Positions 8,279 to 29,461 of a stretch of 33,666 nucleotides of DNA are shown here, piece by piece. The notes beneath the pieces are model-generated. The model did not search any database. It saw nothing but the letters and a program-made list of their open reading frames with translations, and was not told the origin of the DNA. A program made the position numbers and the translations under genes. Position 1 is the first letter of the stretch. Each line of letters begins with the position of its first letter. Source of the DNA: Actinomycetes bacterium. GTDB taxonomy: Bacteria; Actinomycetota; Thermoleophilia; Solirubrobacterales; Solirubrobacteraceae. Location: NCBI GenBank assembly GCA_021851525.1, contig JAJZDA010000014.1, forward strand, positions 1-33,666. The letters run 5' to 3'.

Positions 8279-8374
8279 GAGCGCCCGGCCCCACCGGTCC
8301 CCGGGCGCCCGGCCCCACCGGTCCCCGAGCGCCCGGCCCCACCGGTCCCCGAGCGCCCGGCCCCACCGGTCCCC
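8279..8374. repeat. Four tandem copies of a 24-bp repeat between divergent genes
   Basis: The unit is a two-base R linker (GA or GG) followed by an identical 22-mer, repeated four times head to tail without spacers (8279-8302, 8303-8326, 8327-8350, 8351-8374). Each unit contains the palindrome ACCGGT, and the unit junction reads close to a CCGGGCGCCCGG palindrome. The only variation is in the two-base linker. The array fills most of the gap between the divergent starts of the sulfurtransferase (8262) and the helicase (8407). As 24 is divisible by three, several frames read through it, but no gene start is plausible inside it. Confidence 0.9.
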
Positions 8375-8406
8375 GGCGTCATGTCCGACCCGCGCGGCAC
8401 CATGCG

Positions 8407-13114: not shown

Positions 13115-14314
13115 ATGCATCGCCAGCTGTCAAAGGTCGTCTGCGCCGCCGTGTCGGTCGCGCTCACGCTCGCCGGCGCCGCCTCGGCCAGGACCACGCA
13201 CCGCGCCACCCGCAGTCCCCGCGCGGTCTCCCAGGGCGCGCTCAGCGGCACCGTCACCCTGGTTGACGGCGGCCAGTTCACGATCCGCACCCCCGGCAGG
13301 CCGGTGGGCGTGATCAACGCGCTCACGGTGGCGGCGACCCGCATCGGCGCGCTTGACCTGCCCTACGTCTGGGGTGGGGGGCACGGCCAGGCCGGTGTCG
13401 CCAGCCGTGGCGTGCGCGGCCCCGGCTACAACGGCCGGCGGGTGGGGTACGACTGCTCGGGCGCCGTCGCCGCGGTGCTCAGCGCCGGCGGTCTCTGGCC
13501 CCAGGGCGCGGGCGTCCCCAATGACCTGGGGGTGGTCCGCTACCTGTTGCGCCATCACATGATCGCGCGCGGGGCCGGCAGCGGCCCGGCCGAGGTGACG
13601 CTCTACGACACACCCGGCGTGCACATCTTCATGAACATCGACGGGCGCTTCTGGGGCACCTCCGACGGCGGCGGCGCGGGCGACTCCAAGGGCGGCCCGG
13701 GCTGGCTGGGGTATGGCGCCTGGAGCGGCTCCCGTGGCCTGCGGATCTACCACTTCCTGCCATCTGTGCTTCGTGCCAGGACCACCGCCGGCTCCTCCAT
13801 GACCTTCTACGCCGGCCCGACGGCGGCGCCGGTGCCGGCGGTCGGCACCCAGGTGCGCGTGCTCTACAGCACCTCCGGCTACGGCACGATCATCGCTGAC
13901 GGACTCAGCTACACCCAGCAGGCGACCGATGCGGGCACGCTCACAGCGGTCGCGCCGGCCGGCGTCAGCTTCACGCTCCAGGACGCCACCGGCCTCGCGC
14001 TGAGCTTCAACGTGGCCCCGGGCAGCGTCCTGGCCTCGCAGCTGGCGACCGGCCAGATCCCGCTCGGCACGGCGATCACGGTCACCTACACGGACCTCAC
14101 CACGCAGCTGCCGGGCCCCACGCCCGGCGCGCCGGTGGCGCCGCCGACGCAGGTGCTGAGCGCCCTCTCCCTGACGCTCACGCCGCCGCCCACCACCACC
14201 ACCACGACCACAACCCCGACGACCACAACCACCACCACGCCGACGACGACCACCACGCCGACGAGCACCACCCCAACCACCACCACCCCGACGGGCGGCG
14301 GCGGGGTCGGGTAG
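13115..14314 (+). CDS. Secreted NlpC/P60-like cell wall hydrolase with a Thr-rich tail
   Basis: A 399-residue exported protein that probably acts on peptidoglycan. The N-terminus is a Sec signal peptide (hydrophobic core CAAVSVALTLAGA, cleavage likely after ASA near residue 25). Residues about 75 to 215 look like an NlpC/P60 domain: LPYVWGGGHG, then YDCSGAVAAVL with the putative catalytic Cys, and VHIFMNIDGRFWGTS with the probable catalytic His. Some twenty residues lie between the WGGGHG and DCSG motifs where classic P60 enzymes have fewer. Residues about 225 to 345 form a region of beta character with no family I know. The end is a Thr/Pro tail (codons at 14192-14293) closing in a Gly-rich stub, with no LPxTG or membrane anchor. 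The G-rich ribosome site lies directly against the ATG, so the start is not certain. Confidence 0.75.
   Translation: MHRQLSKVVCAAVSVALTLAGAASARTTHRATRSPRAVSQGALSGTVTLVDGGQFTIRTPGRPVGVINALTVAATRIGALDLPYVWGGGHGQAGVASRGVRGPGYNGRRVGYDCSGAVAAVLSAGGLWPQGAGVPNDLGVVRYLLRHHMIARGAGSGPAEVTLYDTPGVHIFMNIDGRFWGTSDGGGAGDSKGGPGWLGYGAWSGSRGLRIYHFLPSVLRARTTAGSSMTFYAGPTAAPVPAVGTQVRVLYSTSGYGTIIADGLSYTQQATDAGTLTAVAPAGVSFTLQDATGLALSFNVAPGSVLASQLATGQIPLGTAITVTYTDLTTQLPGPTPGAPVAPPTQVLSALSLTLTPPPTTTTTTTTPTTTTTTTPTTTTTPTSTTPTTTTPTGGGGVG
14192..14293 (+). repeat. Low-complexity ACC/ACG tract encoding a Thr-rich tail
   Basis: 34 consecutive codons encode 28 Thr, 5 Pro and 1 Ser in runs of up to eight Thr, using mainly ACC and ACG with some ACA. 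Such stalks in secreted proteins are often O-mannosylated in actinobacteria. The simple sequence may change length by slippage. Confidence 0.85.
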
Positions 14315-14332
14315 GCGGGCTGCGGGCAGCCA

Positions 14333-14348
14333 CCGCCCCCACGGGCGG
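14333..14348. terminator. Short hairpin between convergent genes
   Basis: CCGCCC, loop CCAC, GGGCGG gives a 6-bp GC stem in the 76-nt gap where the NlpC/P60-like gene and the aromatic operon converge. A weak bidirectional terminator is possible. Confidence 0.35.
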
Positions 14349-14390
14349 CGGGGCCGGATGGCTGCGGGGTCGGTTGGGCGGGCCGCGGGC

Positions 14391-15362
14391 TCAGTGCCCG
14401 GCGTCAGCCTCGAACGGTGGCGTTCCGTAGCTGTGGAAGGTCGCGACTGTCGGGTTGTGCCAGGCCTGACCCTTGGCGCGGTCGGCCTCGGTCCAGACCA
14501 CGCAGGGCTCGTCCGGCGCGTAGAGCAGGCGCCCGCCGCTGGTCACCTCGATGCGGTTGCCGCCCGGCTCATAGCCGTAGAGGAAGAAGCCCTGGGCGAT
14601 CGCGTGCTTGGACGGTGCGAACTCTATGAACACGTCGTTCTCCACCCAGATGTCGGCGGCGCGCAGGCACTCCTCGCGGGTGTCGACCCAGAAGGCCACG
14701 TGGTGCAGGCGGCCGTGGGCACCCTGCGCGGCGTGCGCGTCGCGCGTGTAGATCAGCTCGTGCGCGGCAATCGAGAGTGACATCCATGAGCCGCCCAGCG
14801 AGCCGTCGCCCAGCTCGATCCGCTCGTACTCTCGGTAACCGAGCGTGTTCACGCAGAAGTCGCGGTTGGCGCGCACGTCACCGGCGAGGATGTTCACGTG
14901 GTCAAGTCGCTTGACGGCCACGGCCCTGTTGGGCTGCTTGCCGTGCACGTTCTTGAAGTCGGTCTGCTCGTCCGCGGACTTCACGTGACGCTCGCACTCG
15001 TGGTAGAGCTTGAAGCGGTGGCCGTCGGGGTCGCGGAAGCGGTAGGCGCGCCCCAGCCCGCGGTCCGCGCTCTGCTCCCAGCCCTCGCCCAGGCCGCTGG
15101 CCTCGATCAGCTTCACACGGTGCTCCAGCGCCTGCTCGTTCCAGGCCCGCAGGCCGACATAGCCCATCCCTGAGGTGGCCGCCTCGGTCAGCTTCAGCGA
15201 CCAGCCCTGGTAGTCATCCCAGCCGCGCAGGTGGACCGACTGGCCCTCACGCGCAACGACCGTCATGCCCATCATCTCGGTGAAGAACTCGAGGCTCTCC
15301 TGCGGCCGCGGGGTGAGCATCTCAACCGGCCCGAGGTGAGCCAGATCCGGTGGCGTGCTCAT
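14391..15362 (-). CDS. Catechol 2,3-dioxygenase-like extradiol dioxygenase (VOC superfamily)
   Basis: A type I extradiol dioxygenase that would cleave a catechol-type ring next to the two hydroxyls, using Fe(II) or Mn(II). The 323 residues form two VOC domains. The C-terminal one holds the metal ligands: His in LDHVNILAGD (about residue 154), His in LHHVAFWVD (about 218) and Glu in NRIEVTSGG (about 275). Between them, HELIYTRDA supplies a likely second-shell region. The N-terminal domain shows LGPVEMLTPRPQESLEFFTEMMGM, close in pattern to XylE-type enzymes. Last gene of the operon; its ATG overlaps the stop of the aldolase gene by 4 nt. The ring substrate is not evident. The two genes upstream have GalC and GalB character, so a carboxylated catechol, such as a protocatechuate or gallate relative, is a fair guess. 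Confidence 0.85.
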   Translation of the reverse strand: MSTPPDLAHLGPVEMLTPRPQESLEFFTEMMGMTVVAREGQSVHLRGWDDYQGWSLKLTEAATSGMGYVGLRAWNEQALEHRVKLIEASGLGEGWEQSADRGLGRAYRFRDPDGHRFKLYHECERHVKSADEQTDFKNVHGKQPNRAVAVKRLDHVNILAGDVRANRDFCVNTLGYREYERIELGDGSLGGSWMSLSIAAHELIYTRDAHAAQGAHGRLHHVAFWVDTREECLRAADIWVENDVFIEFAPSKHAIAQGFFLYGYEPGGNRIEVTSGGRLLYAPDEPCVVWTEADRAKGQAWHNPTVATFHSYGTPPFEADAGH

Positions 15363-15994
15363 CGCTGCGCCTCGACGATCGCGCGCAGGCCGTCAAGCTC
15401 ATAGGACTTGGCTCCGGCCTGCAGCCGCTCGCGCTTGAGCTGCTCCTTGGCCTCGCGCGCGAGCGCCGCCTCCAGCACCTCGCCGACCCGCAGACGCGGC
15501 ACAACCGCCACGCCGTCCGCGTCCAGCACCAGCACGTCACCGGGGTTGATCGTCGCGCCGCCGACGCTCACCGGGACGTTGAGCTCTCCCGCGGTGGCCT
15601 TCTCGGCGCCCTTCACGCGCACGTGGCGCGCCCAGATCGGCAGGCCCATCTGCACCAGCTCCTCGACGTCACGAACCGAGGCGTCGACCAGGATCGCCGC
15701 CGCCCCCGCGGCCTGCGCCTGGGTCGCCAGCAGGTCGCCCACCAGCGCCACGGCACGCGGCTGCGGCATCGTCAGCACGAGCACCTCGCCGGGCTCCACC
15801 TCGGCCATCGCGGCGTGCACCATCAGGTTGTCGTCTTGGGCGCAGAGCACGGTCCGCGCCGGCCCCGCCGCACGGCTGCCCGGCACTATCTGGTGCAGCT
15901 CCACGTCCACGTAGCCGCCCCGCCCGCCAGCCTCGTAGACCGTCGCGGAGCCGAGCCTGCGCAGCTGCTCGAGCTGTTGCGCGGTGGCGCTCAC
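15359..15994 (-). CDS. RraA/GalC-type HMG/CHA aldolase
   Basis: Predicted class II pyruvate aldolase that cleaves 4-hydroxy-4-methyl-2-oxoglutarate or 4-carboxy-4-hydroxy-2-oxoadipate to pyruvate and pyruvate or oxaloacetate, the last step of the gallate and protocatechuate meta pathways. It has the RraA-like fold: SATVYEAGGRGG near the N-terminus, ALVGDLLATQAQAAGAAAILVDASVRDVEEL with the G-D-L-L and V-R-D catalytic residues (Arg binds pyruvate, Asp holds the metal), and GDVLVLDADGVAVVP near residue 155. 211 residues is normal. The GTG start at 15994 overlaps the stop of the preceding gene by 4 nt. RraA-like proteins are sometimes annotated as RNase E regulators or as menaquinone methyltransferases; the neighbours point to the aldolase role here. 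Confidence 0.87.
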   Translation of the reverse strand: MSATAQQLEQLRRLGSATVYEAGGRGGYVDVELHQIVPGSRAAGPARTVLCAQDDNLMVHAAMAEVEPGEVLVLTMPQPRAVALVGDLLATQAQAAGAAAILVDASVRDVEELVQMGLPIWARHVRVKGAEKATAGELNVPVSVGGATINPGDVLVLDADGVAVVPRLRVGEVLEAALAREAKEQLKRERLQAGAKSYELDGLRAIVEAQR

Positions 15995-16716
15995 AGCTCG
16001 CTCACCACCTGCGGGATCACGCGCTGGAAGGCCTCCGCGTGGCGCACCTCCTGGTTGCCGCTGGCGCGGCGCGCGTGGTTGCCGCGGTGCCCGGCGCGCT
16101 CGGCGTAGTAGGTCTGCAGGTAGGACTGCGCCTGCATCTGCGCCATCGCCTGCTGCTTGCGCTCAAACACTGAGGTGATGTCGACGAAGGTCGTCGGCTT
16201 GAAGTTGCAAAGCTCCGGCTGGTGGGGCTCGAACAGGAACAGGGCCGGCGGCCTGACCGTCGCGAAGGCGCTCTGCACGCCGGCTCCGGCGGCGAGGCTG
16301 CGAGCCCGGTCCACGGCCGCAAACGCCACCGGGTGGTCAGGGTTGAAGGGGTCGGTGTCGGTGTGGGTGATGAGCACGTCGGGCGCGAAGGAGCGGATCG
16401 CGTCGGCGATCAGCTCAAGCTCGGTCCTGCCGATCTGCAGCGGGTAGTCGCCCAGGTCCAGGCAGCGGAAGCTCGCGCCCAGCACGGCTGCGGCGGTCTC
16501 GGCCTCGGCCTGGCGGATCCGCTTGACGTTCTCGATCGTCTGCGGGTGGGCCGGGTCAGAGTTCTTCCACAGCTCACCGGACTCCCCGCGCTCGCCGTAG
16601 GAGAGCGCTATCACCTCGGCCTCGCCACCGAGCTCAACTGCCTTGGCGATCGCCCCGCCGGCCCGCCAGACGAAGTCCGCGGAATGGGCGCCGATCACCT
16701 GGATGCGCCGGCTCAA
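15991..16716 (-). CDS. GalB-like PIG-L family hydratase (4-oxalomesaconate hydratase type)
   Basis: A zinc-dependent protein of the PIG-L/LmbE deacetylase superfamily, 241 residues. The AHSADF motif (GAHSADFVWRAGGAIA, residues about 9 to 24) replaces the AHPDDE of sugar deacetylases and is a mark that I associate with GalB, the 4-oxalomesaconate hydratase of Pseudomonas putida gallate degradation. The second metal site lies in ITHTDTDPFNPDHPVAF (residues about 116 to 132), with HPD-V-type histidines. GalB hydrates 4-oxalomesaconate to 4-carboxy-4-hydroxy-2-oxoadipate, the substrate of the aldolase encoded next, so gene order and chemistry agree. The start is a TTG overlapping the preceding stop by 4 nt. 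An amide or ester hydrolase of the same fold remains possible. Confidence 0.8.
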   Translation of the reverse strand: MSRRIQVIGAHSADFVWRAGGAIAKAVELGGEAEVIALSYGERGESGELWKNSDPAHPQTIENVKRIRQAEAETAAAVLGASFRCLDLGDYPLQIGRTELELIADAIRSFAPDVLITHTDTDPFNPDHPVAFAAVDRARSLAAGAGVQSAFATVRPPALFLFEPHQPELCNFKPTTFVDITSVFERKQQAMAQMQAQSYLQTYYAERAGHRGNHARRASGNQEVRHAEAFQRVIPQVVSEL

Positions 16717-17639
16717 GGCTGATCCTCCCCGGCCAGGCGGCGCGTGTTGGTGACGACCATCATGTGAACCTCCTCCTCACTGAAGCCGGCTTCCAGGAAA
16801 CGGTCGGCGAACAGCGCCATCCCGTCTTCCACCGGTGGGTTGAAGACCTGTCCCAGGTCGGTGGACAGCACGTTGTTGGCCACCCCGGTGGCGCGCACCC
16901 CGGCGAAGACCTGCTCCCAGCCGACCTTGCCGGTGTACGGGGTGGTGAAGCACCGCTCCAGCAGCGCGCCGCGCTGCGCCAGCGCCAGCTGGTCATCGAG
17001 CGAGAGGTTCTGGGAGGGGAACTCAGGATGGGTTACCACCACGTCCCGGACCCCCGCGCGCAGCGCGCCGTCGACCACCGCGAAGATCTCGTCGCGCGCC
17101 AGGTGCCCGGTGGCCAGCACCAGCTGGTGACGCGCGGCCACCTCAATCACCGCCTGCGTCTGCTCGAGCAGCCGCCCGTCCGCGTCGAGCACCTCCACCG
17201 CCTGCGCGGCGAGGCCGGCCTCGCGCAGCTGCATCTCGAAGCGCATCCAGACGGGCATCGGCGCGCCGGGGGCGAAGCTGTGGACCTCATCGATCTCATT
17301 GGCGGCGTGGACCGTGGGCATCCACACGGTGCGCGCGCCCGCACGCGCGGCGATTTCCACCGCCAGCGGGTTGATCCCGCCGACTGCGCGGTTGAGCACG
17401 ATCGCACCGATCGCGCGCACCCCCGGGACTGCCGCGTTGACCGTCCGGGCGCGCTCCGCGGTTGAGCTGTAATGCGACTTCAGCTGGAAGCCGGCGGTCC
17501 CCAGCTCCAGGCAGCGTCGCGCGAGCGTGATGTCGTCCGTGATCCGGGGAACGAAGTCCGGATCGATGTGGACGTGCATGTCGTAGCCGCCTCGCACGAG
17601 CGCTCGGGCGCGCTGAGAGGGCTTCGGGTGCTCGCTCAT
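16713..17639 (-). CDS. Amidohydrolase-like protein (DUF6282-type TIM barrel)
   Basis: First gene of the aromatic operon, 308 residues. The pattern is that of the metal-dependent amidohydrolase superfamily: an HxH pair at the end of strand 1 (His22 and His24 in DMHVHIDPD), a histidine in LATGHLARDE (strand 5 region), another in VVTHPEFPSQ (strand 6), and an Asp in VLSTDLGQ (strand 8). I recognise it as DUF6282, a family with no assigned reaction that I know of. In the ring-cleavage pathway a lactonase step is done by LigI, also an amidohydrolase, so a lactonase or hydrolase acting on a ring-cleavage product is a sensible hypothesis. No Shine-Dalgarno is evident before the ATG at 17639. It is followed by a 4-nt overlap with the GalB-like gene. 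Confidence 0.7.
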   Translation of the reverse strand: MSEHPKPSQRARALVRGGYDMHVHIDPDFVPRITDDITLARRCLELGTAGFQLKSHYSSTAERARTVNAAVPGVRAIGAIVLNRAVGGINPLAVEIAARAGARTVWMPTVHAANEIDEVHSFAPGAPMPVWMRFEMQLREAGLAAQAVEVLDADGRLLEQTQAVIEVAARHQLVLATGHLARDEIFAVVDGALRAGVRDVVVTHPEFPSQNLSLDDQLALAQRGALLERCFTTPYTGKVGWEQVFAGVRATGVANNVLSTDLGQVFNPPVEDGMALFADRFLEAGFSEEEVHMMVVTNTRRLAGEDQP

Positions 17640-17866
17640 GTCATCAACATTGTCGCCAATTCTGTGATCAAGTTACCGGGTTTTGGGGCCCGGCGGTCCG
17701 TGCTTCCGGCGCTCCGTGAGCACGCCCGCGCCGGCCGCGCACTGCGGGATTTCCCCGAACGCGCCGTGTGTGAACACGGATTCTGGGCGCTCGCCGGCGG
17801 CCTACTCTCACTTGATTGAACGGACTGATGTCCTCACCCAGCTGCTGCGGACCTCAGGAGGAGCAG
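17640..17866. promoter_or_regulatory. Divergent control region of the aromatic operon and the stress protein gene
   Basis: This 227-nt gap separates two divergent genes. A perfect inverted repeat CCGTGT-GTGA-ACACGG lies at 17764-17779 and could be an operator. Towards the stress gene, TACTCT at 17803-17808 fits a -10 box with a weak TTCTGG 16 nt before it. Close to the aromatic operon the AT-richest stretch of the gap (17641-17685) contains TGATCA within an imperfect palindrome, a pattern seen in GntR/IclR operators. A strong ribosome site AGGAGGAG lies at 17856-17863. None of these is proven. Confidence 0.35.
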
Positions 17867-18826
17867 ATGTTCAGGAAGGTGCTGGTCGCAATCGACAGGG
17901 AGACGCTCGGCGCGGACGCCATCGCTCTGGCGACGCGGATCGCGCCCGGCGCCCGGCTGAGCTTCGCCCACGTCCACAACGGCTTCCCCTTCGGGGTCGA
18001 TGCCGCCAACCGCCAAGAGCTCGACCGGGAGGCCAGCGACGAGCTGCTGGCGCAGGCGATCGAGGCCTGTGGCCTGGAGGCGGAGCGTTGTCAGATCGAC
18101 TCGTTTCGGATCGGCGCGGGCCTGCACCGGCTGATCGATGAGACCCACCCTGACCTGCTGGTGATCGGCTCCACCCGCACCGCCCGGGTCGGGCGTGTGC
18201 TGGTCACCGATGAGCTCGCCCAGGCGCTCAACGGCGCGCCCTGCGCGCTGGCGGTGGCGCCACTCGGGTACTCGGAGGATGACGTGCCGCTGGCGGAGAT
18301 CGGGGTCGCCTACGACGGCGCGCCGGAGTCCGTGGCGGCGCTTGTGGCGGGCATGGAGATCGCCGAGCGCGCGCACGCCCGCAGCGTGGTCTTCCGCGTC
18401 GCGCCGCTGCCCCACGGTGAGTTGCGTCACGGTGTCTGGGACACCTACGCGGCGGCCATCAGAGACCGTGTGGCGGAGGTCCGCGTGGGGATCGAGAATG
18501 AGCTGGAGACGCTCGGCGTGGCGCAGCATGGCGGCATCGAGTCGCAGGCCGCCTGCGGGGAGACGGTCGAGGAGCTGGCGCTGTTCAGCTCCTACGTGGA
18601 CCTGCTGCTGCTCGGCTCACGCGGCTACGGACCTCCCGGGCGCCTGGTCTACGGCGCCACCACGGCACGCATGCTGCGCAACGCCCGCACGCCGCTGCTG
18701 CTGATGCCGCGAGCGCAGGTCGGTGCGACGCTGCTGCCGGATCGCGCTCAGCTGGAGAGATGGGCGGGGACCGGTCCGCAGAGCAGCGCCTCGGTGGCGC
18801 CGACCGTGTCCGGCCGCGCCAGGTAG
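17867..18826 (+). CDS. Tandem universal stress protein (two UspA domains)
   Basis: A 319-residue protein of two UspA domains, cytosolic. Domain 1 (residues 1 to about 140) begins MFRKVLVAID and ends CALAVAP; its nucleotide loop is degenerate (VIGSTRTARVGRVLV). Domain 2 (about 145 to 290) begins EIGVAYDGAPES and carries GSRGYGPPGRLVYGATTARML, close to the G-2x-G-9x-G-S/T ATP-binding motif, so only the second half is likely to bind ATP. The AGGAGGAG ribosome site decides the ATG at 17867 over an in-frame ATG at 17816. Its last 79 nt overlap, on the other strand, the end of the GAF-GGDEF-EAL gene. The family is tied to starvation, hypoxia and redox stress; no specific signal can be read here. 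Confidence 0.9.
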   Translation: MFRKVLVAIDRETLGADAIALATRIAPGARLSFAHVHNGFPFGVDAANRQELDREASDELLAQAIEACGLEAERCQIDSFRIGAGLHRLIDETHPDLLVIGSTRTARVGRVLVTDELAQALNGAPCALAVAPLGYSEDDVPLAEIGVAYDGAPESVAALVAGMEIAERAHARSVVFRVAPLPHGELRHGVWDTYAAAIRDRVAEVRVGIENELETLGVAQHGGIESQAACGETVEELALFSSYVDLLLLGSRGYGPPGRLVYGATTARMLRNARTPLLLMPRAQVGATLLPDRAQLERWAGTGPQSSASVAPTVSGRAR

Positions 18827-20808: not shown

Positions 20809-22110
20809 TCACGGACTCCCGCAGCCGCCGCCGGGCGCCTGCGGGGCGCCGCCCAGATCGGCGTTGCGCCGCACCAGCAGACGCCGCTCCGCGGGGGTCG
20901 GCGCCAGCTCGATGGCGCGGGTCAGCGCCGCGCGGGCGTCCTCCAGCCGACCGCTCGAGCGCAGCAGCTCCGCGTCGGTCGCGTGCAGCAGGTGGTAGCT
21001 CTCCAGCGTGCCCTCGGCGTGCAGCCGCGCAAGCAGCGAGGCGGCAGCCTGCGGGTCGCCGCTCATGCTCAGCGCGACCGCGCGGTTGAGCGTCACCACC
21101 GGCGAGCCGTTGAACTCCTGCAGCAGCTCGTAGAGCGCGGCGATCTGCGGCCAGTCGGTCAGCCGCGCGCTCGCGGCGCGCGCGTGGCAGGCGGCGATCG
21201 CGGCCTGCAGCTGATAGTTGCCGGGCGCGCGCAGCGCCAGCGCCGCCTCGAGCAGCTCGAGGCCCTCACTCACCTCCTGCGCGTGCCAGCGCGAGCGGTC
21301 CTGCCGGCCGAGCGTGATCAGCTCGCCGCCGGCGTCCAGCCGCGCGTCACGCCGCGAGTGCTGGAGCAGGAGCAGCGCCAGCAGCCCCATGACCTCCGGC
21401 TCATCGGGCATCAGCAGGTGCAGCAGCCTGGCCAGGCGGATCGCCTCATCGCACAGCGCGGTCCTGATCAGCTCGTCCCCGGCGGAGGCCGCGTAGCCCT
21501 CGTTGAACATCAGGTAGAGCACCGCCAGCACACCTCCCGTGCGTGCCGGCAGCAGGTGTGCGTCCGGCACGCGGTAGGGGATCCCGGCAGCCGCGATCTT
21601 GTGCTTGGCGCGGGTCAGCCGCTTGGCCATGGTCGCCTCGGAGACCAGGAAGGCCCGGGCTATCTGCGCGGTGCTCAGCCCGCACAGCATCCGCAGGGTC
21701 AGCGCCACGCGCGCCTCCAGCGGCAGCGCCACGTGACAGCAGGTGAAGATCAGCCGCAGGCGATCGTCGGCGATCTCCCCTTCGGGCGCGACCAGCTCAT
21801 CGACGCGCTCCTCCACGGCCTGCGCGTGGGTGAGCAGCTCCGCGGCGCTCTGCGCCAGAAGCCGCTCACCCCGCGCCCGCCTGCGCAGGCGGTCAACCGC
21901 ACGGTTGCCGGCGACCGTCGTCAGCCAGGCGCCGGGACGCTGCGGCACGCCGGCCCGCGGCCAGCTGCGCAGCGCCTCCGCAAACGCCTCCGCGACGCAC
22001 TCCTCGGCCAGGTCCCAGTCGCCGGTGCGCCGGATCAGGGTCGCCACCACGCGGCCCCACTCCTCGCGGAAGGCGCGGTCCACGGCCTCAGTGACGGCGT
22101 CCCCGCTCAC
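20809..22110 (-). CDS. ECF42-like RNA polymerase sigma factor with C-terminal TPR-like extension
   Basis: A 433-residue extracytoplasmic function sigma factor. Region 2 (residues about 10 to 80) includes WDLAEECVAEAFAEALRSW and the DRLRRRARGE end; region 4 (about 110 to 165) includes LRMLCGLSTAQIARAFLVSEATMAKRLTRAK, the -35 binding helix-turn-helix. From about residue 175 comes the DUF6596 segment (VLYLMFNEGYAAS) and then a helical, TPR-like tail with PVVTLNRAVALS and SYHLLHATDAELLRSSGRLEDA. This make-up is that of group ECF42, which lacks an anti-sigma factor and is regulated by the tail. ECF42 genes are known to adjoin DGPF proteins, exactly as here: its GTG overlaps the DGPF gene by 4 nt. 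Confidence 0.9.
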   Translation of the reverse strand: MSGDAVTEAVDRAFREEWGRVVATLIRRTGDWDLAEECVAEAFAEALRSWPRAGVPQRPGAWLTTVAGNRAVDRLRRRARGERLLAQSAAELLTHAQAVEERVDELVAPEGEIADDRLRLIFTCCHVALPLEARVALTLRMLCGLSTAQIARAFLVSEATMAKRLTRAKHKIAAAGIPYRVPDAHLLPARTGGVLAVLYLMFNEGYAASAGDELIRTALCDEAIRLARLLHLLMPDEPEVMGLLALLLLQHSRRDARLDAGGELITLGRQDRSRWHAQEVSEGLELLEAALALRAPGNYQLQAAIAACHARAASARLTDWPQIAALYELLQEFNGSPVVTLNRAVALSMSGDPQAAASLLARLHAEGTLESYHLLHATDAELLRSSGRLEDARAALTRAIELAPTPAERRLLVRRNADLGGAPQAPGGGCGSP

Positions 22111-22832
22111 ATCTTCCAGAACGGCCGCACCTCAACCCTGTGGACCCGCGCGAGCGGGTGCGCCGCGGCCGCGGAGATCGCCTCCTGGAGGCTCGCGCCG
22201 CTGATCACGTCGAGCCCCGCGATGAACTCCGCGGTCTCCGCGAACGGGCCGTCTGTGACCAGCGTCTCGCCGTTGCGCACACGCACCGTCGTGGCGGTCT
22301 CGCGGTGCTCCAGCGGATGGCCCAGCACCTGCAGCCCGCGCTCACGCAGATCAGCGGCCCAGGCCAGGCCGTCGCGCATGATCTGCGCCTCCTGCGCCGG
22401 CGGGCCGGGGATGCCGTCGACGCACATCATCAGGCAGTGGGCCTGGCCCTCGGCCCACTCGTCCCGCGCGAACGCGGGGGCCTGCGGCCCCAGCTCCAGT
22501 CCCGGCGCGAACGGCCTGATCTCGATCGACTTGAACCATGCGACCGGATGCTTGGAGGCGACCTCGATCGCCTCATCCAGATCCGCACAGTCGATCACGT
22601 CGAAGCCGGCGATGTGCTCCTTGGTCTCGGCGAACGGGCCGTCGCTGAGCAGTGTCTCACCGTCCCTGACGCGCACGGTGACCGCCGCTCCGGGTCCCTG
22701 CAGCGGTGCGCCCAGCAGCCGCACCCCACGCCCGTCCATCTCCGTCACCCAGCCCTCGACCTCGCGCTGCATGACGGCGATCTCCTCCGCCGGCGTCGGC
22801 TCGCTGCTGCAGATGAAGAGCAGGTAGTTCAT
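22107..22832 (-). CDS. Double DGPF (YCII-related) domain protein
   Basis: A small 241-residue protein made of two DGPF/YCII-like domains in tandem. Domain 1 (residues 1 to about 110) opens MNYLLFICSSEP and holds DGPFAETKEHIAGFDVIDC; domain 2 (about 120 to 241) holds DGPFAETAEFIAGLDVISG. Both keep the D-G-P-F motif; each ends in a VEVRPF or IEIRPF strand. Single-domain DGPF proteins are the common partners of ECF42 sigma factors; a fused pair in one chain is less common. The function of the family is unsettled. The start is the ATG at 22832, with the ribosome site AAGGGAGAG before it. It is the first gene of a two-gene unit with the sigma factor. The frame is open upstream through the LacI gene, but only as antisense. 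Confidence 0.88.
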   Translation of the reverse strand: MNYLLFICSSEPTPAEEIAVMQREVEGWVTEMDGRGVRLLGAPLQGPGAAVTVRVRDGETLLSDGPFAETKEHIAGFDVIDCADLDEAIEVASKHPVAWFKSIEIRPFAPGLELGPQAPAFARDEWAEGQAHCLMMCVDGIPGPPAQEAQIMRDGLAWAADLRERGLQVLGHPLEHRETATTVRVRNGETLVTDGPFAETAEFIAGLDVISGASLQEAISAAAAHPLARVHRVEVRPFWKM

Positions 22833-23114
22833 GACTCTCTCCCTTTCGGAGTTTGACGATTCAGACAGGCGACGAACAGCGACGGCGCGGATGGACAGGC
22901 ATCGCGCGCCGCATCGCGCGCCGCCGACCGCGCCGCCCGCGCGCCGCGGCTGGCGGCGATGCCTTCCAGCGGCGCTTGGCCACGCTTTACCATCGGCTCG
23001 TGTGCGTTGCGCAGAGACCGAGCGGTCAGACCGGGGCGGACGGGACCGGGCAACCTGCCCGCGGCGCCCCGCTGGGCGCCGCGCGCCGCGCCGGCAGCCG
23101 GCGAGGTGACGCCG
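22833..23114. promoter_or_regulatory. Divergent region between the DGPF-sigma operon and the LacI gene
   Basis: The 282-nt gap is rich in GCGC tracts. A 12-mer GCATCGCGCGCC is repeated twice back to back (22899-22922). On the minus strand, a TGTTCG and a CGTC about 18 nt apart lie just before the DGPF gene. They recall the TGTCGA and CGTC-like boxes reported for ECF42 autoregulated promoters, but the match is loose. The LacI gene has a GAGGTGA ribosome site at 23103-23109. I see no gene inside. Confidence 0.35.
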
Positions 23115-24212
23115 ATGGCGCGTGAGCGCACGGCCGACGGTGACGGCGCCGCGCGCCGCGCGCGGCGCACGCGCGCCGACGGCAGCAGGCCGGTGACGAT
23201 GACCGACGTGGCGGCCGCCGCCGGGGTCGCCCAGAGCACCGTCTCCCGGATCCTCAACGACGCGCCGGCCCCCATCTCGGTCTCGCCGCAGACGCGTGAG
23301 CGCGTGCACGCGATCGCCCGTGAGCTCGGCTACCGCCCGCACCCGATCGCGCGCGCCCTGCGGGGCGCGCCGACGATGCTGCTCGGGGCGATTGTGCGCG
23401 ACATCACCGACCCGTTCTTTGCGGGGGCGATCGAGGCGCTGTCGCTGGAGTGCAAGGCCCGCGGCTACTCGGTGGTGCTGGGTCACGCCCGCGCCGCGGC
23501 CGATGAGGCGCTGGCCATGACCGCGGTGCTGGAGGCGCGCCAGTGCGACGCGATCGTGCTGCTCGGCGACTTCACCGCCGAGCACCGGCTGGTGGAGGAT
23601 CTGCGCCAGGGGCACGCGCCCGTGGTTGGGCTCTGGCACGGCTCTGAGCGCGACCGCCCGTTTCCCACGGTCGGCGTCGACAACCGCGCCGGGGTGCGCG
23701 CCGCGCTCGAGCATCTGATGGCGCTCGGGCATCGCAACATCGCCTATGTCGGCGTGGAGTCGCTGGGGGACATGCAGGAGCGCAGCGGCGCCTACATGGA
23801 GCTGATGGCGGCGGCCGGCGGGCCGCCGCCCCCCGGGTATGTGCAGACCGTCGCCAACACGGTGCTCAGCGGGCAGCCGGCGCTGGACGCGATCCTCGCC
23901 CAGGAGCCCCGTGCGACGGCGATCTTCGCGGCCACCGACACGATCGCCCTGGGTCTGCTGCACGCGGCCTACGAGCGTGACCTGCGGATCCCCGAGGATC
24001 TCTCGATCGTCGGGTTCGATGACCTGCCGATGGCGGCCGCCAGCGTGCCGTCGCTGACCACCGTGAAGATGCCGATCCCGGAGATCGTCGCCAGGGGTGT
24101 TGAGCTGTGCATCGGCGAGCGCGCCTGGGACGGTGAGGGAGCAGCGCCCCATGTGCTGCTGGCGCCGAGCCTGGTGGTGCGTCGCTCAACCGCGCCCGTC
24201 GCCGCGCGATAG
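23115..24212 (+). CDS. LacI-family transcriptional regulator, probable repressor of the arabinose locus
   Basis: A 365-residue LacI/GalR-type DNA-binding protein. After an Arg/Ala-rich N-terminal extension of 28 residues comes the helix-turn-helix (MTDVAAAAGVAQSTVSRIL, residues 29 to 47) and hinge (ELGYRPHPIARALRG). The sugar-binding core begins LLGAIVRDITDPFF and contains GHRNIAYVGVESLGDMQERSGAYME, FAATDTIALGLLHA and LSIVGFDDLPMA, all at usual positions. The ATG at 23115 has a GAGGTGA ribosome site and is preferred over longer versions of the frame. A palindromic operator lies 167 nt downstream of its stop, in the promoter of the transport and ara genes. L-arabinose or a relative is the probable inducer by context only. 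Confidence 0.92.
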   Translation: MARERTADGDGAARRARRTRADGSRPVTMTDVAAAAGVAQSTVSRILNDAPAPISVSPQTRERVHAIARELGYRPHPIARALRGAPTMLLGAIVRDITDPFFAGAIEALSLECKARGYSVVLGHARAAADEALAMTAVLEARQCDAIVLLGDFTAEHRLVEDLRQGHAPVVGLWHGSERDRPFPTVGVDNRAGVRAALEHLMALGHRNIAYVGVESLGDMQERSGAYMELMAAAGGPPPPGYVQTVANTVLSGQPALDAILAQEPRATAIFAATDTIALGLLHAAYERDLRIPEDLSIVGFDDLPMAAASVPSLTTVKMPIPEIVARGVELCIGERAWDGEGAAPHVLLAPSLVVRRSTAPVAAR

Positions 24213-24364
24213 GCGGGGCCGCGGTGGGTCTGCGGTCTCGCGCGGCTCGGTCTGACGGTCACCGGCGGCGGCGATCAGCGACGGCGCGCCGGGCTGGCCC
24301 GGCCGTTGTGCGGCGCTTCGCGACGGCTCGCCGGGACTCCGATATTGGCGTTCTGTTAGCTCCC

Positions 24365-24400
24365 TTGACACCCACTGCATACGATTGCTTACATTCGTAT
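24365..24400 (+). promoter_or_regulatory. Sugar operon promoter overlapped by a LacI-type palindromic operator
   Basis: A consensus -35 box TTGACA lies at 24365-24370. The likely -10 region is in the AT-rich stretch around 24388-24395 (for example TTACAT), 17 to 19 nt later. Over it lies a 22-bp palindrome with arms ATACGA (24379-24384) and TCGTAT (24395-24400), plus further symmetric bases between. Its size and place fit an operator for the LacI-type protein encoded just upstream, repressing by blocking polymerase. Confidence 0.65.
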
Positions 24401-24414
24401 CTGAGGAGAGGGAA

Positions 24415-24483
24415 GTGGACCGGACCTGTAATCACGGGGGCGCTGGACCCCGCCAACTGATCGACCGCTCGACGGTGCGCTGA
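24415..24483 (+). CDS. Possible 22-residue leader peptide before the ABC transporter operon
   Basis: A GTG at 24415 with AGGAG at 24404-24408 (6-nt spacing) starts a short frame of 22 codons ending in a TGA at 24481-24483. Its product begins MDRTCNHGGAG and ends IDRSTVR. The next gene starts 2 nt later in another frame and has no clear ribosome site of its own, so translation of the short frame may be coupled to it. No run of one codon points to attenuation. It may also simply be a ribosome loading site. I know of no similar peptide. Confidence 0.4.
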   Translation: MDRTCNHGGAGPRQLIDRSTVR

Positions 24484-24485
24484 CG

Positions 24486-26033
24486 GTGGCCGTGTCCGCA
24501 CCCCAGCAGAACGTCGTCGGTGACGCGGTCGCGTCGCTCGCCTATGAGGCGCTCGAGATCAGCAAGTCATTTGGCGGCGCCAAGGCGCTGGACGGGGTCA
24601 GCGTCGACTTCAGGCCCGGGGAGATCCACACGCTGGTCGGTGAGAACGGCGCCGGCAAGTCCACGCTGCTGCGCGTGATGTCCGGGATCTATGAGCGCGA
24701 CGGCGGTGAGCTGCGGCTCGGCGGTGAGTCGCTTGAGCGCCTGACCCCGCGCGAGGCGCAACATCGCGGCATCTACCTGGTGCCCCAGGAGCCGACGCTG
24801 ATGCCGCACCTCTCGGCGCTGGAGAACCTGTTCGTCGGCATCATCCCGCGCGGGCGGCTGCCGTTCACCGTGGACTGGAAGCGCATGCGTGAGTCCGCCG
24901 GTGACTACTTTGCCCAGCTCGGTCTGGCGATCGACCCCCGCCAGCGCGCGGAGACGCTCAGCATCGCCCAGCAGCAGCAGCTGGAGTGCGCCCGCGCGCT
25001 GGTGCACAACTGCAGCGTGATCTTCTTCGACGAGCCCACCTCGCCGCTGACCGCGCATGAGGCGGAGATGCTGTTCGCGCTGATGCGTCGCCTGCGCGAG
25101 CGCAACTTCACGCTCGGCTTCATCAGCCATCGCCTGGATGAGGTGCTCGAGCTCTCCGACCGCATCACCGTGCTGCGTGACGCGCGCGTGGTGGCCACGA
25201 TGGACGCGGCCGACGCGTCGCGTGAGCTGCTGGTCAACGAGATGGTCGGCCACCAGGTCACCATCCAGCGCCGCCACGCGCGCGCGGCGCAGAGTGACGA
25301 CGTCGCGCTGTCGGTGCAGCAGCTGCAGCGCGAGGGCGAGTTTCACAACATCTCGTTTGAGGTGCACCGCGGCGAGGTGCTCGGCCTCGCCGGGCTGGTC
25401 GGCAGCGGCCGCACGGAGATCGCGGAGACGATCTTCGGCCTGCGCCACGCCGAGGCCGGCCGGATCACGCTCGAAGGCCACCAGCTGGTGCGCCACAGCC
25501 CGCGCTCCTGCATCGACCGCGGCCTGATCTACCTCTCCGAGGACCGCGGCCGCAACGGGATCTTCGCCGACGTGCAGCTGCCGGAGAACGTCAGCTCGGC
25601 GATCGTGCCGCGGCTGCCGCGGCTGCGCGGCCTGCTCAACCGCAGGGTCGAGCAGCGGCTGGCGGGCGAGGCGATGGAGCGCACCCAGGTCCGCGCACTG
25701 CGCCGGGATGTCCCGATCCGCAGCCTCTCGGGAGGCAACCAGCAGAAGGCGCTGTTCGCGCGCTGGTTGCTGGCCGAGCCCAAGGTGGCGATCTTCGACG
25801 AGCCGACCCGCGGCGTGGACGTCGGCGCCAAGGCCGACATCTACGCGCTGATCGACGGGCTCGCGCGTGACGGCGTGGCGATCATCGTGATCTCCTCTGA
25901 GCTGGAGGAGCTGACCTGGATCTGTGACCGCGTGATTGCCGTGTATGAGGGGCACGTCACCGGCGAGCTGAGCGGCGAGCAGATCACCGTCGCGGCGCTC
26001 GGCCGGCTGATCGTCGAGGAGGGCGGCGCATGA
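24486..26033 (+). CDS. Sugar ABC transporter ATPase, AraG/XylG/RbsA type
   Basis: A 515-residue ATPase with two fused nucleotide-binding domains, the CUT2 pattern of pentose importers. NBD1: Walker A GENGAGKST near residue 56, signature LSIAQQQQLECARAL, Walker B VIFFDEPTSPLT and switch His in FISHRLDE. NBD2: a degenerate Walker A GLVGSGRTE, as usual in this family, then signature SLSGGNQQKALFARWLL and Walker B VAIFDEPTRGVDVG. The degenerate second site is normal for RbsA-like proteins. Start GTG at 24486 lies 2 nt after the leader frame. Its stop overlaps the first permease by 4 nt. The substrate is judged to be L-arabinose because araA, araB and araD follow in the same run of genes. Confidence 0.93.
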   Translation: MAVSAPQQNVVGDAVASLAYEALEISKSFGGAKALDGVSVDFRPGEIHTLVGENGAGKSTLLRVMSGIYERDGGELRLGGESLERLTPREAQHRGIYLVPQEPTLMPHLSALENLFVGIIPRGRLPFTVDWKRMRESAGDYFAQLGLAIDPRQRAETLSIAQQQQLECARALVHNCSVIFFDEPTSPLTAHEAEMLFALMRRLRERNFTLGFISHRLDEVLELSDRITVLRDARVVATMDAADASRELLVNEMVGHQVTIQRRHARAAQSDDVALSVQQLQREGEFHNISFEVHRGEVLGLAGLVGSGRTEIAETIFGLRHAEAGRITLEGHQLVRHSPRSCIDRGLIYLSEDRGRNGIFADVQLPENVSSAIVPRLPRLRGLLNRRVEQRLAGEAMERTQVRALRRDVPIRSLSGGNQQKALFARWLLAEPKVAIFDEPTRGVDVGAKADIYALIDGLARDGVAIIVISSELEELTWICDRVIAVYEGHVTGELSGEQITVAALGRLIVEEGGA

Positions 26034-27100
26034 CCACCGCGCCGAGCCCGTCGCCGCTGCTGAGCGCGCGCCCCGCGGGAGTCGGGCAGCGCAGCGCGCG
26101 CCGAACGCTCAGCCGCCTGCTGGCGATGCGTGAGCTGCAACTGGTGCTGGTCACGGTCGTGATCTTCGCCATCACCACCGCGCACGCCTCGACCTTCATC
26201 TCCGCCGGGAACATCTCGTTCCTGCTGGCCGACGCGATGGCGGTGGCGGTGATCGCCGTCGGGCAGACGATCGTGGTGCTGACGCGCGGGATCGACCTCT
26301 CGGTCGCCCCGATCCTCGGCACGGCGGCGCTGGCCGTCGGCTTCCTGGCTCAGAACCACAACCTCACACCGCTCGAGGGCCTGCCGCTCGCGCTGGCGAT
26401 CGGCGCGGCGATGGGGCTCGGCAACGGCTTCATGGTCGCGCTCGCCGGAATCCCGCCGATCATCGCGACGCTCGGCTCGCTCGCCATCTACAGCGGCGTG
26501 CAGGCGATCGTCGCGCACAGCCAGGAGGTGGTGACGCTGCCGCCCGCCTACTTCAACCTCGGCAACGGCGACGCGATCAACGGCATCCCCTATCTGGCGC
26601 TGATCGGCGCCGGCGTCGCCATCGCCTTCGCGCTGATCCTCTGGCGCACGCGCTTTGGCCGCTCCATCTACGCGGTGGGCAACAACGCCGAGGCCGCCCG
26701 CCGCGCGGGCATCAACGTCAGCCGCGTGACCGTCTCCAGCTACGTGCTGTGTGGGGCGCTCGCCGGGCTCGGCGGGCTGATCTTCCTGGCGCACGTCGGC
26801 TCGGCCGACTCAACCACCGGCACCGACTCCAACATCCAGCTCACCGCGATCGCGGCGACGCTGATCGGCGGCACCACGCTGACCGGCGGCAAGGGCGGGG
26901 TGATCGGCAGCTTCCTGGCGGCGATCTTCCTCGAGGTGGCGCTCGCCGCGCTGGTCGAGTTCCGGCTGAACCCGATCTGGGAGCCCGCCGGGGTCGGCGT
27001 GATGATCCTGCTGGCGGTGCTCGCCGATCCCACCACCGGGCGGCCGTCGCTGCGCTCCGCGCTGCGCATGCTGCTCCAGTCGCAGAGGGCCAGGACATGA
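26030..27100 (+). CDS. Sugar ABC transporter permease 1 (CUT2, RbsC/AraH-like)
   Basis: An integral membrane permease of 356 residues with eight to ten helices. The CUT2 motifs are present: GQTIVVLTRGIDLSVAPILG near residue 83, GIPPIIATLGSLAIYSGV, the cytoplasmic coupling loop (GRSIYAVGNNAEAARRAGINVSRV), and TLIGGTTLTGGKGGVIGSF near the end. It overlaps both neighbours by 4 nt (26030-26033 and 27097-27100), so translation is coupled. Many CUT2 systems use one permease as a homodimer; here a second, different permease follows, so the channel is probably a heterodimer. Confidence 0.93.
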   Translation: MTTAPSPSPLLSARPAGVGQRSARRTLSRLLAMRELQLVLVTVVIFAITTAHASTFISAGNISFLLADAMAVAVIAVGQTIVVLTRGIDLSVAPILGTAALAVGFLAQNHNLTPLEGLPLALAIGAAMGLGNGFMVALAGIPPIIATLGSLAIYSGVQAIVAHSQEVVTLPPAYFNLGNGDAINGIPYLALIGAGVAIAFALILWRTRFGRSIYAVGNNAEAARRAGINVSRVTVSSYVLCGALAGLGGLIFLAHVGSADSTTGTDSNIQLTAIAATLIGGTTLTGGKGGVIGSFLAAIFLEVALAALVEFRLNPIWEPAGVGVMILLAVLADPTTGRPSLRSALRMLLQSQRART

Positions 27101-28137
27101 GCGCGATGGCTGAGGGGCCCGCGCGCATCCGTCGCGGGCTGCGCCTGAACTCTGAGCAGTGGTGGATGACCTCGCTGGCGGTGCTGCTGGCCGCGGAGCT
27201 GCTCTACTTCTCGCTCGGCGTCCAGGGGTTCTGGGGTGGCGGCACGGGCATGCTCAACCAGACCGAGTACTTCCTGGACATCGGGATCATGGCGATCGGC
27301 GTCGGCTTCGTGATCTTCGCCGGTGACATCGACCTCTCGTGCGGGGCGATGGCGAGCTTTGTCGGGATCGTCATGGCGGAGCTCTGGAAGCAGGGCGTGG
27401 AGATCTGGGTGGCGGCGCTGATCGCGGTGCTGATCGCGGCGCTGATCGGCCTGATCCACGGGCTGATCATCACGCTCTTCCGGCTGGAGTCGCTGCTGGT
27501 CACGCTCGCCAGCCAGTTCATCCTCGGCAGCCTGGCGACGGCCATCGGCGGCGGCTACCCGCCCTACGGGTTCCCGCACGCGTTCACCTCGATCGCCGGC
27601 ACCGGCAGCGTCGGACCGATCCCGGCGCAGATCATCATCTTCGCGGTGATCGGCTGGTTCTCGGTGCTGCTCGTGCACCGCACCGCGTTCGGCCGCTCGC
27701 TGGTGCTGCTCGGGCACAACCGTGACGCGGCCCGCTACACCGGCGTCAACGTCTCCTGGACCAGGGTCCGCGCGTTCGTGCTCTCCGGGCTGTTCGCGGG
27801 GATCGCCGGGATCGTGATCGCCGCCACCTACAACTCGGTGCGTGATGACCTCGGCGACTCGCTGCTGCTGCCGGCCATCACCGCCGTGGTGCTGGGCGGG
27901 GTCGACATCTTCGGCGGGCGCGGCCACATGGCCGGCGTGCTGTTCGCCACCTTCGTGCTGGGCTTCCTCTATCAGGGGTTGCTGATCGAGGGCATCAGCC
28001 AGCTCACCGCGAACATGGTCGGTGGCGGCGTGCTGGTGGTGGCGCTGGCGCTGAAGATCGGGCTCGAGCGCCGCGGCGGCGGGCTGAGCTTCGCGCACCG
28101 GCTGCGCGCAAGGTTTTCACCTGGCGGTGTCCCATGA
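27097..28137 (+). CDS. Sugar ABC transporter permease 2 (CUT2)
   Basis: A second CUT2 permease of 346 residues, about 30 percent or less like the first by eye. Motifs include IMAIGVGFVIFAGDIDLSCGAM near residue 70, where the family usually has G-x-D-L-S; RLESLLVTLASQFILGS; the coupling loop GRSLVLLGHNRDAARYTGVNV; and AVVLGGVDIFGGRGHMAGV. The ATG at 27097 overlaps the stop of permease 1. The frame is open further upstream inside permease 1, but in a different frame from it and without family sequence. The pair of non-identical permeases in one operon suggests a RhaP/RhaQ-like or AI-2 type arrangement, with a heterodimeric channel. Confidence 0.92.
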   Translation: MSAMAEGPARIRRGLRLNSEQWWMTSLAVLLAAELLYFSLGVQGFWGGGTGMLNQTEYFLDIGIMAIGVGFVIFAGDIDLSCGAMASFVGIVMAELWKQGVEIWVAALIAVLIAALIGLIHGLIITLFRLESLLVTLASQFILGSLATAIGGGYPPYGFPHAFTSIAGTGSVGPIPAQIIIFAVIGWFSVLLVHRTAFGRSLVLLGHNRDAARYTGVNVSWTRVRAFVLSGLFAGIAGIVIAATYNSVRDDLGDSLLLPAITAVVLGGVDIFGGRGHMAGVLFATFVLGFLYQGLLIEGISQLTANMVGGGVLVVALALKIGLERRGGGLSFAHRLRARFSPGGVP

Positions 28138-28140
28138 GGG

Positions 28141-28250: not shown

Positions 28251-28280
28251 CAACCAACAACATTATGGAGGGGAAGGGGA

Positions 28281-29342: not shown

Positions 29343-29363
29343 ACCACTGGAGGCTCCTCAGGT

Positions 29364-29416: not shown

Positions 29417-29461
29417 TCACCACCGACCTTCTGCACTGACCCGCTCCGATTGGAAACCACA

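What the first reader, a model, noticed from the sequence alone, without database searches (positions are those of the whole stretch)
14391..17639. Mixed-ancestry aromatic ring-cleavage operon with an uncharacterised amidohydrolase
Four minus-strand genes are joined by 4-nt overlaps throughout. In order of transcription they are a DUF6282-type amidohydrolase-like protein, a GalB-like hydratase, an RraA/GalC-type aldolase, and a catechol 2,3-dioxygenase-like VOC enzyme. GalB and GalC are the last two steps of the gallate/protocatechuate 4,5-cleavage route, whose dioxygenase is usually a LigAB/GalA (type II) enzyme and not a VOC (type I) enzyme. No tautomerase (GalD) is visible. The amidohydrolase has HxH, H, H and D metal ligands and could be a lactonase (compare LigI) or a decarboxylase. 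The set may be a new variant of a lower pathway, with its substrate unknown.
Basis: partly seen in the sequence, partly recalled or inferred. Interest (0 to 1): 0.72.

Follow-up and report, generated by a model that had tools for sequence, protein, structure and literature searches.

The report
Gallate/methylgallate ring-cleavage operon, new type
Soil actinobacteria that live on plant matter carry a conserved four-gene operon that probably opens and breaks down the ring of gallate or 3-O-methylgallate, a key intermediate of hardwood lignin, using an iron dioxygenase of a different family from the known gallate-cleaving enzymes and an uncharacterised hydrolase-like protein in place of the usual tautomerase.

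Summary
In detail: DUF6282, GalB-like, RraA/LigK-like and VOC genes at 16713-17639, 15991-16716, 15359-15994 and 14391-15362 (minus) overlap by 4 nt each. It is not a patchwork of this genome: the same order recurs in about 33 other loci (Solirubrobacterales and, by inference, Rubrobacter). Three comparisons place it. (1) In G316 and five Streptomyces-like genomes the homologous operon is GalB-GalC-GalD-VOC, with GalD above the curated OMA-tautomerase cut-off, so VOC sits where GalA should be and DUF6282 where GalD should be; PrpF/GalD is absent from all 21 DUF6282-operon genomes tested. (2) Syringate demethylase DesA co-occurs (8 of 9 operon genomes versus 5 of 387 others) and in G471 lies beside the operon. 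(3) Two DesA genomes without the operon carry LigAB next to GalB-RraA instead. Best reading: a meta-cleavage lower pathway for 3-O-methylgallate/gallate with a type I dioxygenase in place of type II LigAB/DesZ/GalA, and DUF6282 supplying the OMA-forming step (PDC/CHMOD hydrolysis, or OMA tautomerisation). No activity is shown; substrate and DUF6282 reaction are inferred. New variant of a known kind.

The parts
16713..17639 (-). DUF6282 protein (PF19799), amidohydrolase-superfamily fold; first gene of the operon. Proposed PDC/CHMOD hydrolase or OMA tautomerase (takes the operon slot of GalD)
   Evidence: no PDB sequence relative; pLDDT 85.8; dihydroorotase, 2,6-dihydroxybenzoate decarboxylase, PDC hydrolase 2ffi among fold matches
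15991..16716 (-). GalB-like 4-oxalomesaconate (CHM/KCH) hydratase, PIG-L family, TTG start
   Evidence: 5cgz GalB E 4e-55; HxxD, DHP and EPHQPE motifs invariant in 12 relatives
15359..15994 (-). RraA/GalC/LigK-type 4-carboxy-4-hydroxy-2-oxoadipate aldolase, GTG start
   Evidence: NF006731 192 bits, cut-off 179; 3noj E 1e-43
14391..15362 (-). VOC type I extradiol dioxygenase; proposed gallate/3-O-methylgallate dioxygenase
   Evidence: (Fe triad His155/His214/Glu267 and Tyr257/His248/Asn157/Trp192 of HPCD conserved)
17640..17815 (.). Intergenic region between the operon and the divergent universal-stress-protein gene (17816 +); presumed promoter region
   Evidence: no sigma-70 consensus promoter or terminator found in 14200-17900

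Best explanation
The four genes encode a lower pathway for aerobic breakdown of syringyl-lignin acids. Inferred route: syringate is O-demethylated by a DesA-type tetrahydrofolate enzyme (encoded elsewhere in this genome, beside the operon in relatives) to 3-O-methylgallate, and possibly on to gallate. The VOC protein, a type I extradiol Fe(II) dioxygenase, cleaves that ring. With gallate the product is 4-oxalomesaconate (OMA); with 3-O-methylgallate it is CHMOD, which cyclises to PDC unless hydrolysed. DUF6282, an amidohydrolase-fold enzyme, brings the product to the form that GalB accepts: most likely by hydrolysing PDC or the CHMOD methyl ester (LigI/MgaC role), otherwise by tautomerising OMA (GalD role). 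GalB hydrates it to 4-carboxy-4-hydroxy-2-oxoadipate, and the RraA/LigK-type aldolase splits that to pyruvate and oxaloacetate. Shown here: gene content, order, conservation, linkage and replacement patterns, conserved catalytic residues. Inferred: every reaction, the substrate, and which reaction DUF6282 performs.
For: Conserved order DUF6282-GalB-RraA-VOC in about 34 loci including the window. Replacement 1: operons GntR-GalB-GalC-GalD-VOC-MFS in five Streptomyces-like genomes and GalB-GalC-GalD-VOC in G316; two GalD proteins scanned score 494 and 497 bits on NF033377 OMA tautomerase (cut-off 440), and the MFS gene is an aromatic-acid/H+ symporter relative (TIGR00895 234 bits). PrpF/GalD absent in 21 of 21 DUF6282-operon genomes, present in G316. 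Replacement 2: DesA genomes G051 and G075, which lack the operon, carry LigAB beside GalB-RraA. DesA linkage: G471 DesA (814 bits, cut-off 800) divergent from and next to the operon; G316 DesA divergent from its operon; DesA homologues flank the operon in Rubrobacter-like genomes. Co-occurrence 8 of 9 versus 5 of 387 (Fisher 8e-13), and 15 of 16 DesA genomes in the family have the operon (2e-11). The window's genome has an MTHFR-domain protein, PurU and a DesA homologue in a row, with PobA nearby. A SnoaL_4 (PF13577) gene, the family of MgaD in syringate catabolism of Pseudomonas NGC7 (PMC12314914), overlaps the VOC gene in L033-L035. Basic residues R182, R229 and K238 are nearly invariant in GalB-linked DUF6282 and almost absent from other DUF6282 proteins.
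Against: No enzyme of the set has been assayed. The nearest characterised VOC relatives (AphC type, catechol 2,3-dioxygenases) act on catechols without a ring carboxylate, and the HPCD residues Arg243 and Arg293, which bind its substrate's carboxylate, are not conserved. Many operon genomes of the family lack DesA (15 of 30), so syringate via DesA cannot be the only source. In the window's genome DesA is on another contig and scores 559 bits, below both the DesA and LigM cut-offs. The window's genome also encodes one weak LigB-family protein (353 aa, 69 bits) of unknown role. Co-occurrence counts are not corrected for relatedness. No promoter, transcription or growth data.
Confidence: 0.62

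Rival explanations
1. Protocatechuate 4,5-cleavage pathway made of non-homologous parts: VOC = LigAB role, a DUF1932 beta-hydroxyacid-type dehydrogenase = LigC role (CHMS to PDC), DUF6282 = LigI role (PDC to OMA), GalB, RraA.
For: A DUF1932 dehydrogenase is joined to the operon in the Rubrobacter-like genomes and in L036, L044, L166, L179 and near it in L174. PobA (4-hydroxybenzoate to protocatechuate) lies near DesA in the window's genome and in two Rubrobacter-like genomes. DUF6282 has an amidohydrolase fold with PDC hydrolase 2ffi among its matches.
Against: The window's genome (90% complete) has no DUF1932 match, and its closest relatives lack it at the operon. The GalD-VOC operons of Streptomyces-like genomes have neither dehydrogenase nor hydrolase, which fits gallate and not protocatechuate. 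The published lignin study reports protocatechuate ortho cleavage in these groups (PMC9296663).
Confidence: 0.2
2. DUF6282 is a new 4-oxalomesaconate tautomerase that replaces GalD, and the substrate of the operon is gallate only.
For: Swap between GalD and DUF6282 in otherwise homologous operons and genome-wide absence of PrpF in DUF6282 carriers. GalB of P. putida uses only the enol form (PMC9942251), so some enzyme for this step is expected. One sublineage (L168-L170, L172, L182) has lost the metal ligands H22 and H204 and Lys54 while keeping H24, H56, H179, D261, R182, R229 and K238, compatible with acid-base isomerisation.
Against: Amidohydrolase-fold enzymes are mostly hydrolases or decarboxylases; DesA linkage points to 3-O-methylgallate, whose cleavage needs a hydrolase or yields PDC (PMC8091115, PMC12314914).
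Confidence: 0.35
3. A catechol or alkylcatechol meta-cleavage enzyme (VOC) that only happens to be co-transcribed with a GalB/RraA pair used for another branch.
For: VOC scores 296 bits on TIGR03211 (cut-off 320) and a Streptomyces-like relative 323 bits, over the cut-off; PDB relatives are catechol dioxygenases.
Against: VOC stays with GalB and GalC in three separate lineages with different partners. GalB and RraA have no place in catechol meta cleavage, and no DmpD-, DmpE- or DmpG-like gene was noticed beside the operons (not searched with family models).
Confidence: 0.12

Closest known systems
gal operon of Pseudomonas putida KT2440 (GalA, GalB, GalC, GalD, GalT; PMC9942251)
   Same: GalB hydratase and GalC-type aldolase, same expected end products
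   Different: Ring cleavage by a VOC type I enzyme instead of type II GalA; DUF6282 instead of GalD
Syringate pathway of Pseudomonas sp. NGC7 (VanA1B1, MgaAB, MgaC, MgaD, GalDBC; PMC12314914)
   Same: 3-O-methylgallate route to OMA and GalB/GalC; a SnoaL_4 (PF13577) protein like MgaD joins some of the operons; GntR regulators in both
   Different: MgaAB is LigAB-like and MgaC an alpha/beta-hydrolase; here VOC and DUF6282, no GalD, and DesA-type instead of Rieske demethylase
[quoted passage not shown] PMC8091115, PMC3962378)
   Same: DesA-type demethylase, CHA aldolase, likely same intermediates
   Different: All three ring-cleaving enzymes there are type II; hydratase LigJ and isomerase LigU are different families (own knowledge)
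AphC/RHA1-type and XylE-type catechol 2,3-dioxygenases; PDB 9wgj
   Same: Fold, Fe(II) triad and catalytic residues; 9wgj is the nearest solved relative (E 2e-88)
   Different: Operon context with GalB/GalC; His200 of HPCD is kept in Solirubrobacterales VOC but is Tyr in the Rubrobacter-like, Streptomyces-like, G316 and 9wgj proteins
LigI 2-pyrone-4,6-dicarboxylate hydrolase
   Same: Amidohydrolase TIM-barrel fold; 2ffi among matches
   Different: No detectable profile similarity to a small Amidohydro_2 set (hhalign probability 4.6%); DUF6282 is its own Pfam family

Membership tests
GalB 4-oxalomesaconate hydratase | Sequence similarity to P. putida GalB over full length with PIG-L metal motif | tested here: met
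   5cgz E 4e-55 over residues 6-239; H11, D14, H128 and the EPHQPE motif invariant
GalB 4-oxalomesaconate hydratase | Hydration of OMA enol to CHA | not testable with these tools
   needs enzyme assay
CHA aldolase (GalC/LigK) | Score over the curated cut-off of a CHA aldolase equivalog | tested here: met
   NF006731 192.4 bits, cut-off 179; but TIGR02798 185.7 bits, below its 304.5
Type I (VOC) extradiol dioxygenase | 2-His-1-carboxylate Fe triad and catalytic Tyr/His | tested here: met
   HPCD positions 155, 214, 267, 248, 257 conserved in all 39 homologues compared
Catechol 2,3-dioxygenase (TIGR03211 equivalog) | Score over the curated cut-off of 320.2 bits | tested here: not met
   295.9 bits for the window protein
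Type II gallate/protocatechuate dioxygenase (GalA, LigAB, DesZ) | LigB domain PF02900 | tested here: not met
   VOC protein has only glyoxalase-type matches
gal operon (gallate pathway) | GalA + GalB + GalC + GalD together | tested here: not met
   GalB and GalC present; GalA and GalD absent; works like one by inference
LigI PDC hydrolase (PF04909) | Match to Amidohydro_2 or profile similarity | tested here: not met
   only PF19799 matches; hhalign 4.6% against three Amidohydro_2 proteins; fold resemblance only
DUF6282 (PF19799) | Score over the Pfam gathering cut-off | tested here: met
   214.7 bits, cut-off 26.8

The most novel reading that the evidence does not exclude
The VOC protein is the first type I extradiol dioxygenase for gallate/3-O-methylgallate, and DUF6282 is a new enzyme class for the OMA-forming step (PDC/CHMOD hydrolase or OMA tautomerase, possibly metal-independent in one lineage), together forming an unrecognised syringyl-lignin pathway of Thermoleophilia and Rubrobacter.
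Probability: 0.45. Interest if true: 0.75.

Novelty: new variant of a known kind. Interest (0 to 1): 0.62.

Why it matters
Stable-isotope work showed that Solirubrobacterales and Rubrobacter assimilate lignin carbon and encode DesA-like demethylases, and inferred protocatechuate ortho cleavage; its text mentions no gallate or extradiol route (PMC9296663). The ring-cleaving enzymes for gallate, 3-O-methylgallate and protocatechuate in SYK-6 are all type II (PMC3962378), and homology surveys such as the one in PMC12314914 look for those genes. This operon is a concrete, directly testable candidate for the missing step. It would show that the gallate-type meta pathway was assembled with two unrelated dioxygenases, would give DUF6282 a first function, and would supply enzymes for making or avoiding PDC from lignin.

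Tried and rejected
Paper search for DUF6282 returned nothing; searches for type I gallate cleavage or this operon gave no description of it. Bacillus ligniniphilus C23O (PMC8671467) was checked as a possible relative: the characterised BLC23O is a short, distant enzyme and says nothing on gallate. hhalign of DUF6282 against Amidohydro_2 relatives found no profile similarity, so LigI membership is not claimed. PDB sequence search with DUF6282 found nothing. Mapping of HPCD carboxylate-binding arginines onto VOC did not explain a carboxylate-bearing substrate. The VOC tree left 9wgj and the Rubrobacter-like group unresolved. No promoter or terminator consensus. The deacetylase reading of the PIG-L gene was dropped because its only solved relative by sequence is GalB and its context is ring cleavage.
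Full report
WHAT IS THERE. Four minus-strand genes, 14391-17639, each overlapping the next by 4 nt: DUF6282 (308 aa), PIG-L/GalB (241 aa), RraA (211 aa), VOC dioxygenase (323 aa). GalB's only PDB sequence relative is P. putida 4-oxalomesaconate hydratase 5cgz (E 4e-55). RraA exceeds the cut-off of the CHA-aldolase model NF006731 and its best PDB relative is the CHA aldolase 3noj. VOC falls just short of the catechol 2,3-dioxygenase equivalog (296 versus 320 bits), with 9wgj, 3lm4 and 7q2a as nearest solved structures. DUF6282 has no solved relative by sequence; an AlphaFold model from eight sequences (pLDDT 85.8) matches amidohydrolase-superfamily TIM barrels: dihydroorotase, 2,6-dihydroxybenzoate decarboxylase, lactonases, and PDC hydrolase 2ffi at rank 26. 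The flanks are unrelated: an L-arabinose gene set, a universal stress protein, a GGDEF/EAL protein and others.

CONSERVATION. The same four genes in the same order were found in 7 of 8 named Solirubrobacterales/Actinomycetes contigs of the genome collection, the eighth being cut off at a contig end, and in whole genomes of the window's family and of a second family f18. G041 of f18 has a single chromosome of 3,225,748 bp; from memory this is the size of Rubrobacter xylanophilus DSM 9941, so I call f18 Rubrobacter-like, an inference. In f18 a DUF1932 dehydrogenase follows VOC, with DesA homologues, an intradiol dioxygenase, ABC transporters and a GntR gene around. In L033-L035 and L180 a SnoaL_4 gene follows VOC, overlapping it by 4 nt in L033-L035.

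WHICH PATHWAY. First, replacements. A search of 396 genomes of the phylum with the GalB alignment gave 17 genomes. Nine have the DUF6282 operon (G048 is divergent and cut off). Five large genomes of one genus (f25/g50, Streptomyces-like by size, an inference) carry GntR-GalB-GalC-GalD-VOC-MFS, and G316 carries GalB-GalC-GalD-VOC divergent from DesA. The two GalD proteins scanned score 494 and 497 bits on the OMA tautomerase equivalog (cut-off 440), and the MFS gene belongs to the aromatic acid/H+ symport group. So a type I dioxygenase homologous to the window's (46-48% identity) stands in the place of GalA in otherwise complete gal operons. PrpF/GalD is absent from 21 of 21 DUF6282-operon genomes and present in G316: DUF6282 and GalD exclude each other in this sample.

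Second, syringate demethylase. DesA-like proteins (at least 300 bits) occur in 13 of the 396 genomes: 8 of 9 operon genomes and 5 of 387 others (Fisher 8e-13). 12 of 13 DesA genomes have GalB (3e-18). In the window's family, 15 of 16 DesA genomes carry the operon, while 15 of 30 operon genomes have no DesA (2e-11). These tests ignore relatedness. In G471 DesA (814 bits, over the 800-bit cut-off) is divergent from and next to the operon. The window's genome has one DesA homologue (559 bits) in a run MTHFR-domain protein, PurU, DesA with PobA nearby, an arrangement expected for tetrahydrofolate-linked O-demethylation.

Third, the alternative. DesA genomes G051 and G075 lack the operon but have LigAB next to GalB-RraA (LigA over its TIGR02792 cut-off). 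LigB-family proteins are absent from G338, from all six Rubrobacter-like operon genomes, and from most operon genomes of the window's family that were tested; G048 has one, and the window's genome and G457 have one weak match each.

Known biology fits. In SYK-6, gallate, protocatechuate and 3-O-methylgallate are cleaved by type II DesB, LigAB and DesZ (PMC3962378). 3-O-methylgallate gives CHMOD, which cyclises to PDC (PMC8091115). In Pseudomonas NGC7 MgaC hydrolyses CHMOD and MgaD, a SnoaL PF13577 protein, is predicted to act next (PMC12314914). P. putida GalB takes only the enol form of OMA (PMC9942251). Solirubrobacterales and Rubrobacter assimilate lignin carbon and encode DesA-like enzymes (PMC9296663).

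ACTIVE SITES. VOC keeps the iron triad and catalytic residues of HPCD, but not its carboxylate-binding Arg243 and Arg293 (roles from memory); His200 is kept in Solirubrobacterales and is Tyr in the Rubrobacter-like, Streptomyces-like and G316 proteins and in 9wgj. GalB-linked DUF6282 proteins share R182, R229 and K238 (34 of 35 each), hardly found in 11 other DUF6282 proteins; basic residues in these loops would suit a di- or tricarboxylate. Five proteins of one genus have lost H22, K54 and H204 but keep H24, H56, H179, D261 and the basic trio. Missing HxH in some f18 rows comes from my start-site calls.

VERDICT. Best reading: a 3-O-methylgallate/gallate meta-cleavage lower pathway with a type I dioxygenase (0.62). 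Within it, DUF6282 as PDC/CHMOD hydrolase is slightly favoured over OMA tautomerase (0.35). A protocatechuate version with the DUF1932 dehydrogenase in LigC's place is possible in some carriers (0.2). The scores overlap, since some alternatives concern one step only. Every reaction is inferred. Novelty: new variant of a known kind.

Noticed in passing
L168, L169, L170, L172, L182 (DUF6282 genes): One genus (g252, large genomes) has lost amidohydrolase metal ligands H22 (Tyr), H204 (Asn/Ser) and Lys54 (Met/Thr) while keeping other active-site residues; a possible metal-independent branch.
   Followed up: partly
L046, L047, L048, L049 (DUF6282 neighbours): Other DUF6282 proteins (33-38% identical to the window's) recur beside a three-gene set (clusters c13, c21, c22) whose sizes suggest a molybdenum hydroxylase; families not tested.
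   Followed up: no
L178:8216-9550, L183:6660-7994, L032:4663-5997, L030: A malic-enzyme-like gene lies divergently beside the operon in four close relatives; pyruvate and oxaloacetate are the expected pathway products.
   Followed up: partly
L166:7485-8609: A short MetE-like gene (NF005085 442 bits) sits between GntR and the DUF1932 dehydrogenase at the head of the operon in a genome without DesA; could be another methyl-handling enzyme.
   Followed up: partly
L171:6050-7663, L033:3525-5177: Benzoylformate-decarboxylase-like TPP enzyme joins or flanks several of the operons; role unknown.
   Followed up: partly
L145:2862-3731 and L036:13022-13855: An Amidohydro_2 protein (64% identical pair) occurs at the window genome's DesA locus and near the operon in L036; possibly a further ring-acid enzyme.
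   Followed up: partly
L235:8191-11308: Second GalB locus in G051: GalB-RraA-Gfo/Idh dehydrogenase-Amidohydro_2, looks like a protocatechuate 4,5 (LigC/LigI-like) branch.
   Followed up: partly
window 23106-33380: LacI regulator, sugar ABC transporter and AraA/AraB/AraD-like genes: probably an L-arabinose utilisation set.
   Followed up: no
window 20809-22110 and 22107-22832: Sigma-70-like protein with DUF6596 and TPRs overlapping by 4 nt a gene that looks like a two-domain YCII-type protein.
   Followed up: no
window ~8280-8403: Short tandem repeat (PGTGGAGRS-type) at the start of a rhodanese-like ORF and in the antisense frame.
   Followed up: no
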